Below are positions 7,291-20,090 of a stretch of 64,000 nucleotides of DNA, in pieces. A model generated the notes under the pieces. It was not told the origin of the DNA. It searched no databases and worked only from the letters and a program-made list of their open reading frames with translations. Origin of the DNA: Ignisphaera sp. (lineage in GTDB: Archaea; Thermoproteota; Thermoprotei_A; Sulfolobales; Ignisphaeraceae); contig JAPWTX010000001.1 of the NCBI GenBank assembly GCA_028275825.1, positions 1-64,000 on the forward strand. Direction: 5' to 3'. Position numbers and translations under genes: made by a program. Within the stretch, counting starts at the first letter, position 1; each line of letters opens with the position of its first letter.

Positions 7291-8411
7291 AGGGTTTTGG
7301 TAACTGCCAAGATTGAGGCTGTTGCCCCCGAGGGAGGTGAGACTATACTAATCCAGTTCCTAAAGATTTATAGAGATGTTGTTCAGCACATAGTTAACAG
7401 GATTTGGCTTTTGGATGATGCTCTATCTGAAGAGAAGTTGCATAAAATGTTTTATGAAGAATTAAAGAGGTTTGGTTTTAGAGCTCATCACGTATCTGAG
7501 ATAAGAGGGCTAGGGAGGTTATTGAGGGTGCTAAGAGGAATAATGGCTCTAAACCTGTATTGAGAAGGTTAACTGCTAGAATACATCAGCTAGACTATAG
7601 AATTGACTTCAATGCAAAGACGCTAAAGATAGCTGTTCTAAATGATCAGTGAGTTAAGCTAAAGCTCAAGTGGTATAAGTATTTAGATAAGTATCTCGAT
7701 GGTTCTTGGAGATCTGGGGAGATGTTGATTAGCTATAGAAATAATAAGATATTTGTTTACATAGCATTTCATAGAGGTGTTGAGCTCATTGCCTTCAAAG
7801 CTGTTGTAGGTGCAGACATAAACTTCAACAATGTTACATACACTGTCATAGACTTGAGTGGAGTTCTAATCACATTTGGTGTTATACCGTTTAGGGGATT
7901 GAGGAGGGCTCTACACCTAAAGAAGCTTTCTGAAGATTTGCAGAGGAGGTACCTAAATTCTTGGAGATTCATAAAATGGGTTAGAAGGGCTAGGGGTAGG
8001 TGGCTTAGCAGAGCGAGGAACATATTGATGGATTCAGCCCATAGATTATCTAAAAGAGTTGTGGAGATAGCTAGTGAGCATAAAGCATTGATTGTTTTTG
8101 AGGATTTGGAGAGGCTTAAAGAGAATAGCAATAACAATTACAGACTCTCATGGGAAAAATCCTTGTGGTGCTATAGGAGGGTGCAGATGTTCACAGAGTG
8201 CAAAGCCATTTTTCACGGAATTAAAACAGTTTATGTAAACCCATTTAAGACATCTAGGAAATCACCTAACGGCGAAAAGCTGAGTTTCATAAACTACAGA
8301 TTCGTTAAACTAGGAAACATAATAACATCTAGAGATGTTGTTGCGTCTTGGAACATAGCGCTAAGGGGGATTAAAGCGTGTGAGGGGCTCAAGGATTTTG
8401 TTGAGCCCTGA
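7291..8411 (+). pseudogene. tnpB: IS200/IS605-family TnpB (OrfB) #1, frameshift plus in-frame stop
   Basis: Three colinear pieces: MRVLVTAKIEAV..., REVIEGAKRNNGSKPVLRRLTARIHQLDYRID..., then GADINFNN, VFEDLERLKEN, TSRDVVASWNIALRG. Confidence 0.85.
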
Positions 8412-18900: not shown

Positions 18901-19422
18901 TTAAATCTTGTATAGCTTGACGGTGTTTTCGTCTAGTACTGCTTTGGCTATGTCGATTGCTGTATCTCTATCGATGTAGTCTAGGTATACCATCTCTGCT
19001 AATACATATGCAAGCTCTTTCTTGGCAAGAGCAGCTTTTCCGTAAACTCATTCAACTGTGTATGCATAACTGAAGAATCCTCCTATCTTGTTGTAGGGTA
19101 GCATTTGTAGTCGTAGCTTGAGGTAGCTCCTAATTATTTCTGGGTACATTGAGTACCACCAGTAGCTATTTAGAAACACGTTTTGGTAGTTCTTAGCCAC
19201 AACAGTGAATTGGTGGGAGAATAGTGGATCAGCAATCATTATATCAAACTTTACGTCAGGATACATAGCAAAGATACTCACCAAGTTGGGTACTTGTTGA
19301 GGGTTATACACAGTTATTGCGTAATCTGGTGAAGCCATTGGCACTGGACGCTTAACACCTAAACATGAACTGAGCAACTTTGCCACAGTGACTGCATAGC
19401 TATAACAATTTATGTAGCACAA
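18901..19422 (-). pseudogene. Uronate-isomerase-like C-terminal remnant with in-frame TGA
   Basis: FDIMIADPLFSHQFTVVAKNYQNVFLNSYWWYSMYPEIIRSYLKLRLQMLPYNKIGGFFSYAYTVE*VYGKAALAKKELAYVLAEMVYLDYIDRDTAIDIAKAVLDENTVKLYKI. Confidence 0.55.
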
Positions 19423-19633
19423 ATGATGCTACTGCAATGCCTAGAGAGGTCGCTAGATTCATATAGTCAAGACCTGGGCTGTTTCCGTAAATAGGGCGAG
19501 CTAGGGTTGTTTAAGTCCTTTTAGGGCTATGAGATATGCTGATGCCGTGTGCCTGCCTAGTCTATATTTTCTCATCGCATCGTCGTGCTCTCGGGAACTT
19601 ATCTTTATAAACCCCTAGACCCTTATAAAATTG

Positions 19634-19776
19634 TTGGTGACCCCAGGTTTCCGAGAACCGCTCCAGAAGGGCGGTGAGGGGCCTGGGGAGACCGTGAGGA
19701 GCCCGAGGGTGGCACTAAACAACCTTAAAACACCATAAACAACCGCTCTCGGGTGAACGGCTAAAGAGCTCAGGCC
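19634..19776 (+). ncRNA. Candidate structured RNA: two GC-rich hairpins with kink-turn-like motifs
   Basis: CCCCAGG/CCTGGGG and ACCGCTC/GGGCGGT nested; then CCGT-GAG-GA-GCCCGAG...CTCGGGT-GA-ACGG; TATA-like TTTATAAA about 30 nt upstream. Confidence 0.5.
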
Positions 19777-19884
19777 ATGTACGAAGAACTTTTAACTAAA
19801 GCCGATGAACACTACTACCCCAAATATCTTGAGAAGTTACATGAACTTGTCTATTCCTCTAACATGCAGAAGACTAACAGCTGA
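19777..19884 (+). CDS. 35-aa ORF within right repeat (MYEELLTKADEHYYPKYLEKLHELVYSSNMQKTNS), possibly a C-terminal remnant
   Basis: Amino-acid sequence and stop position conserved in the inverted left copy. Confidence 0.4.
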   Translation: MYEELLTKADEHYYPKYLEKLHELVYSSNMQKTNS

Positions 19885-19972
19885 TATACTTCAGGTCAAT
19901 GAGCAGTTTCAATGAACATCACCATTGCATGCCTGATATTCATCACATGCAATGGTCAGGGCAATTCATTGA
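19801..19972 (+). repeat. Right copy of inverted repeat bounding the accessory island
   Basis: 62/73 identities by hand with left copy in the block tgatatacttcaggtcaatg...cacatgcaatg; nested palindrome TCAATGAA/TTCATTGA and CCATTGCATG/CATGCAATGG. Confidence 0.8.
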
Positions 19973-20014
19973 GAAGGGGGTGAATGGAGACATGTAGCAA
20001 TTTTCAATTGTTTA

Positions 20015-20090
20015 TGCGGCGGCCGGGATTTGAACCCGGGATCTCCGGCTCGGCAGGCCGGCGTCCTAGACCAGGCTAGACGACCGCCGC
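20015..20090 (-). tRNA. tRNA-Gly(GCC)
   Basis: GCGGCGG/CCGCCGC acceptor, anticodon loop CTGCCGA, T-arm GGTTCAAATCC. Confidence 0.95.

What the first reader, a model, noticed from the sequence alone, without database searches (positions are those of the whole stretch)
19634..19776. Candidate new structured RNA with two kink-turn-like hairpins
A GC-rich block in AT-rich debris folds as CCCCAGG/CCTGGGG enclosing ACCGCTC-CAGAAG-GGGCGGT, with a CGA-GA / GA internal loop. It is followed by CCGT-[GAG]-[GA]-GCCCGAG...CTCGGGT-[GA]-ACGG, which fits the kink-turn consensus (3-nt bulge plus tandem G-A) bound by L7Ae. A TATA-like TTTATAAA lies about 30 nt upstream. I see no RNase P CR-I (GGAAAGTCC), SRP GNAR-loop context, tRNA or C/D box set. 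It ends at the ATG of the 35-aa ORF in the right repeat, so it could be a stand-alone RNA or an L7Ae-controlled leader.
Basis: partly seen in the sequence, partly recalled or inferred. Interest (0 to 1): 0.7.

Follow-up and report, generated by a model that had tools for sequence, protein, structure and literature searches.

The report
Guide-like RNA of archaeal TnpB-type transposons
The window holds a shortened mobile element that carries only a folded RNA; the same RNA lies back to back with a miniature TnpB-type (Cas12-ancestor) nuclease gene in many heat-loving archaea and ends exactly where the element ends, as the guide RNAs of such nucleases do, so it is probably a so far uncatalogued kind of guide RNA.

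Summary
The structured RNA is real: strand +, 19636-19760, no Rfam match. It is a dispersed repeat, not a host RNA. In 82 of 216 genomes of the order (about 15 copies in this genome) it sits head-to-head, divergently, with a ~365-aa TnpB-family RuvC gene (D-E-D kept, no zinc finger), or alone in ~0.3-kb deletion derivatives like this one (19479-19760). Covariation is strong: 19 of 27 pairs show compensatory changes, 0/500 shuffles match. U-G pairs fix the strand. The second hairpin is a textbook kink-turn whose outer stem (CCGU/ACGG, GCGU/ACGC, CCGC/GCGG) closes at the element's right end. Beyond it every copy differs, except that the first base is C or T (59/59). The left flank ends in GGG (31/37), and two insertion sites are uninterrupted in several relatives. 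Best explanation: an omegaRNA (reRNA) with the flank as guide and a G-rich TAM, for a TnpB clade whose RNA is encoded upstream on the opposite strand instead of at the 3' end. Guide use, cleavage and L7Ae binding are inferred, not shown. The cis-leader idea is not supported. Verdict: a new variant of OMEGA/TnpB systems.

The parts
19476..19478 (+). GGG in the left flank (candidate TAM / insertion-site motif)
   Evidence: GG among the last 3 flank bases in 35/37 elements and GGG within the last 4 in 31/37; G-run also present in uninterrupted homologous sites of one element
19479..19500 (+). left end of the element (core CTGTTTCCGTAAATA)
   Evidence: same left-end motif in intact and deleted copies
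19501..19596 (-). remnant of the C-terminus of the TnpB-like gene (residues ~333-360, stop codon at the left); the rest is deleted
   Evidence: tblastn 86% identity, E 1e-9; 9 of 11 copies in the closed genome G041 carry the same kind of internal deletion
19604..19611 (+). TATA box of the RNA
   Evidence: sequence; TATA-like peak at -32 in 25 of 39 homologues
19636..19693 (+). hairpin 1 of the RNA (long stem with GA-rich internal loop)
   Evidence: A2 covariation: helix 1, 8 of 11 pairs with double changes; helix 2, 4 of 5
19692..19760 (+). hairpin 2: terminal kink-turn; outer stem CCGU/ACGG closes at the element's right end
   Evidence: helices 3 and 4, 97-98% of cells paired; outer-stem variants CCGU/ACGG, GCGU/ACGC, CCGC/GCGG
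19636..19760 (+). whole RNA scaffold
   Evidence: model R1, 129.8 bits, E 2.4e-27 (the window copy is one of the 25 sequences of the model); conservation stops here
19761..19780 (+). presumed guide (flanking DNA CTAAAGAGCTCAGGCCATGT); length by analogy with TnpB
   Evidence: right flanks are unrelated (27% mean identity) but start with C or T in 59/59

Best explanation
19479-19760 is a non-autonomous deletion derivative of a transposon whose full form (~1.3 kb) is [left end][tnpB-like gene, leftward][shared promoter region][RNA, rightward, ending at the right end]. The RNA is most likely an omegaRNA/reRNA: an independently transcribed two-hairpin scaffold with a kink-turn at its 3' end, continued by about 20 nt of flanking DNA as guide. 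The TnpB-like RuvC nuclease, supplied in trans by a full copy, would bind the scaffold and cut DNA that carries a G-run TAM followed by the flank sequence, i.e. the empty site, which favours retention or spread of the element. L7Ae may stabilise the kink-turn. Shown: repeat nature, boundaries, divergent layout, RNA structure and strand, TnpB homology, G-run on the left and pyrimidine on the right, uninterrupted sites. Inferred: transcription, guide use, TAM role, cleavage, L7Ae.
For: Covariation 19/27 pairs, 0/500 shuffles on all measures; U-G pairs in 23/25 and 17/25 sequences fix the strand. RNA next to and divergent from the gene in 39 gene-linked loci and in four full copies outside the order. 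Nothing folds at the canonical place, the ORF 3' end (mean z -0.09). Scaffold ends sharply; flanks unrelated, first base Y 59/59, left GGG 31/37. Closed genome G041: 11 copies with near-identical scaffolds, 11 different flanks, 2 genes. Insertion sites intact in relatives for L083 and L113. Protein: profile-profile with canonical TnpBs of the same genus, prob 96-98%, E 5e-9 to 1e-14, D209/E273/D346 aligned to D..E..D; NCBIfam guided_TnpB down to 9e-9 in members of the superfamily.
Against: No transcript, binding or cleavage data. The typical member scores below the curated cut-offs for TnpB, and PDB profile hits are only E~0.1, though seven of nine, including the best, are TnpB/Cas12f. Junctions of L049, L079, L090, L100 and L110 do not align base for base. 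No structure prediction was possible. The GG on both sides could be a recombination core and not a TAM.
Confidence: 0.8

Rival explanations
1. The RNA is a DNA- or RNA-level end signal of the transposon (right-end hairpin recognised by a transposase in trans) and is not used as guide by the TnpB-like protein.
For: Copies without the gene are common and keep both ends, as transposase recognition would require. IS200/IS605 ends do carry hairpins (general knowledge).
Against: Selection acts on an RNA strand (U-G pairs kept; z -5.2 vs -3.2 on the other strand). The scaffold has a TATA box at a fixed distance and a kink-turn, which is an RNA motif. Own genome and G041 lack Y1 TnpA; G041 also lacks a serine resolvase.
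Confidence: 0.12
2. The RNA regulates the divergent tnpB-like gene or host mRNAs, for example as an L7Ae-bound sRNA or antisense RNA.
For: Shared promoter region; kink-turn; transposon-derived RNAs regulate mRNA in S. solfataricus (PMC3674436).
Against: The scaffold ends at the element end with a different continuation at every locus; a divergent layout gives no antisense overlap with the gene; it persists in copies without the gene.
Confidence: 0.05
3. An IS110-type bridge RNA or TIGR-like guide.
For: Kink-turn and a C-box-like GUGAUGA resemble the box C/D logic shared by IS110, TIGR and snoRNAs (PMC12045711).
Against: The partner is TnpB-like, with D-E-D and the DPxxT motif region; the only Pfam match is a weak Cas12f1-like_TNB hit in 3 of 37 members; one open flank, not two internal guide loops; no repeat array.
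Confidence: 0.02

Closest known systems
IS607 TnpB with RAGATH-18-derived reRNA (PMC11061315)
   Same: ~390-aa TnpB, separate non-coding reRNA with a possible kink-turn, 3' guide from the flank, G-rich TAM (AGGAG, GAGGG)
   Different: there the reRNA starts 13 nt downstream of the gene, on the same strand; here it lies upstream on the opposite strand with its own TATA box. Other scaffold (no RAGATH-18 match), no zinc finger, no adjacent serine recombinase seen
IS200/IS605 TnpB and omegaRNA, e.g. SisTnpB1 of Sulfolobus islandicus (PMC10640517); processing of own mRNA (PMC10278001)
   Same: RuvC nuclease, two-hairpin scaffold ending at the right end, flank as guide, motif before the left end, tnpB-only elements
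   Different: omegaRNA there lies at the 3' end of tnpB and can be cut from the tnpB mRNA; TAM AT-rich (TTTAA). A divergent RNA cannot be made from the tnpB mRNA
IscB omegaRNA
   Same: RNA encoded on the 5' side of the nuclease gene (general knowledge)
   Different: there same strand and guide at the RNA's 5' end; here opposite strand and presumed guide at the 3' end; no HNH
Box C/D sRNA and L7Ae kink-turns
   Same: GUGAUGA plus GA closing a kink-turn
   Different: no C'/D' pair, D box GUGA rather than CUGA, guide outside the motif, mobile-element context

Membership tests
OMEGA / TnpB-omegaRNA | RuvC nuclease of the TnpB family with D-E-D triad | tested here: met
   D209 and E273 invariant, D346 at least 90%
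OMEGA / TnpB-omegaRNA | C-terminal CxxC zinc finger | tested here: not met
   no CxxC pair in A3; canonical TnpBs of the same genus mostly have it
OMEGA / TnpB-omegaRNA | conserved structured RNA that ends at a transposon end | tested here: met
OMEGA / TnpB-omegaRNA | RNA at the 3' end of tnpB, same strand | tested here: not met
   divergent in all gene-linked loci; ORF 3' end has no excess structure
OMEGA / TnpB-omegaRNA | variable flank follows the scaffold; fixed motif beyond the other end | tested here: met
OMEGA / TnpB-omegaRNA | RNA-guided cleavage of TAM plus target | not testable with these tools
   needs biochemistry
Rfam families, incl. RNase P type T, SRP, RAGATH-18, C/D and H/ACA | covariance-model score over the gathering cut-off | tested here: not met
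Kink-turn (L7Ae site) | C stem, 3-nt bulge, tandem GA/GA, NC stem | tested here: met
   window exact; 25/39 strict, 37/39 with GA or AA; kept with another sequence (AGGGG-UAU-GA-GGAC..GUCC-GA-CCCCU) in the distant f11 group
Kink-turn (L7Ae site) | binding by L7Ae | not testable with these tools
   gel shift needed
IS200/IS605 element | Y1 TnpA in the element or genome | tested here: not met
   none in the element; absent from own genome and from closed genome G041
IS607 element | serine recombinase | tested here: inconclusive
   none in the element; 4 in own genome but none in G041 or G010; GG at both ends would fit

The most novel reading that the evidence does not exclude
A separate branch of OMEGA systems in the window's archaeal phylum, in which a zinc-finger-less TnpB uses a divergently transcribed, kink-turn (L7Ae-assisted) guide RNA with a G-rich TAM, and one nuclease serves a dispersed set of RNA-only copies, each with its own guide. 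It spreads in genomes that lack both known TnpA types.
Probability: 0.5. Interest if true: 0.85.

Novelty: new variant of a known kind. Interest (0 to 1): 0.72.

Why it matters
It would break the rule that a TnpB guide RNA is the 3' end of its own gene or lies just behind it, would add a widespread unlisted archaeal RNA family, and would link RNA-guided nucleases with the archaeal kink-turn/L7Ae machinery. It would also give very small, probably thermophilic nucleases with a G-rich TAM to test.

Tried and rejected
Rfam, also relaxed, and RNase P type T in the own genome: nothing. My first reading of the ORF as downstream of the RNA was wrong: genome-search loci are not oriented; corrected. Viral contigs: no protein relative; 9 DNA pattern hits were chance. 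Plasmids and phages: none. Structure prediction was not run because its rule admits only sequences from other tools. RNA-257 of S. solfataricus considered: it derives from the distal part of an ISC1904 transposase gene, i.e. canonical orientation. The L110 junction was in frame but not decided. Literature searches found no divergent TnpB RNA, but most subscription papers are not held.

Full report
What was checked. Rfam has no match at the gathering cut-off in the window other than three tRNAs; a relaxed scan of 19400-20000 gave only weak, chance-level matches outside the RNA.

It is a dispersed repeat. A DNA search found the segment in 18 of 60 relatives, with up to 14 copies in one genome. 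A covariance model built from 25 copies (R1) finds it in 82 of 216 genomes and 46 of 79 genera of the order, about 15 times in this genome at E below 1e-3, and in 41 of 400 genomes sampled over the phylum, 23 of them outside the order.

It belongs to a transposon with a TnpB-type gene. Search hits came unoriented. Once turned, all gene-linked copies have the same layout: gene leftward, about 50 bp, RNA rightward. The gene codes for ~365 aa and has relatives in 69 of 216 genomes of the order. D209 and E273 are invariant, D346 nearly so, and no CxxC zinc finger is present. Most members match no curated model above cut-off, but profile-profile comparison with canonical TnpBs of the same genus gives 96% and 98% probability over the RuvC region, with the three acidic residues in register. 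These pairwise E-values are rough.

The RNA is a real, strand-specific structure. On alignment A2, 95.9% of cells pair, 19 of 27 pairs have changes on both sides, and none of 500 shuffles reaches any of the five measures; slid controls fall to 37-55% paired. Frequent U-G pairs at fixed positions would be A-C on the other strand. [quoted passage not shown] A TATA-like box peaks 32 nt upstream. The outer stem of the terminal kink-turn exists as CCGU/ACGG, GCGU/ACGC and CCGC/GCGG. In a distant protein subgroup (25-37% identity) the RNA ends in the same way or in a kink-turn of quite different sequence (my reading of that alignment).

Its 3' end is the element's right end. After ACGG/ACGC the copies share nothing (27% mean identity over 20 nt) except a first base that is C or T in 59 of 59. 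The left flank ends in GGG in 31 of 37 (left ends were picked by eye). A joined-flank search found uninterrupted sites: L083 in four relatives and L113 in four relatives; allowing for 2-3 bases shared by both ends the junctions close, with no long target duplication. The dehydrogenase-like gene hit by L049 is intact elsewhere in the same genome with 3 extra bases at the joint. L079, L090, L100 and L110 are less clean.

Full and deleted copies live together. In closed genome G041 there are 11 copies with near-identical scaffolds and 11 different flanks: 2 full (~1.3 kb) and 9 of roughly 0.3 kb that keep the last ~33 codons, the promoter and the RNA. The window copy (19479-19760) is of the second kind; its gene remnant is residues 333-360. 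In this genome the best full-length gene copy has an internal TGA, so activity here is uncertain.

Mechanism. A structured RNA ending at a transposon end, a variable flank behind it, a fixed short motif beyond the other end, and a linked TnpB-family nuclease are the marks of OMEGA systems (PMC10278001, PMC10640517). The simplest reading is that the flank is the guide and the G-run the TAM. G-rich TAMs and a possible kink-turn are known in IS607 TnpB/RAGATH-18 (PMC11061315), but there the RNA is downstream on the same strand. The divergent layout means that the RNA cannot be processed from the tnpB mRNA; an own promoter would replace that, and one nuclease could serve many RNA-only copies. What moves the element is open: no Y1 TnpA in this genome or G041, and no serine resolvase in G041.

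Limits. No expression, binding or cleavage data; no structure model; no species names; boundaries rest on comparison; the alignment was made by MAFFT and not fitted to the structure.

Noticed in passing
window 7590-8363 (+): Degenerate canonical TnpB (NCBIfam guided_TnpB, E 6e-19, one internal TGA), unrelated to the element studied.
   Followed up: no
window ~19905-19970: Near-perfect inverted repeat (CATTGCATG ... CATGCAATG within a larger TCAATGAA/TTCATTGA frame) between the element and the tRNA gene at 20015-20090; gives chance-like miRNA hits in the relaxed Rfam scan.
   Followed up: no
G041 (closed genome), L220-L230: Eleven near-identical element copies in a genome without any detected Y1 TnpA or serine resolvase: the mobilising enzyme is unknown.
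   Followed up: partly
L119-L127 (family f11): In the distant subgroup a small ORF with an AbrB-like look sits between the TnpB-like gene and the RNA promoter, on the strand of the gene (my reading; no model search done).
   Followed up: no
G000:C10:12555-13646: Best full-length TnpB-like gene of this genome has a single in-frame TGA.
   Followed up: no
window 19048-19422 (-): 124-aa ORF left of the element that looks like a decayed gene fragment; not identified.
   Followed up: no
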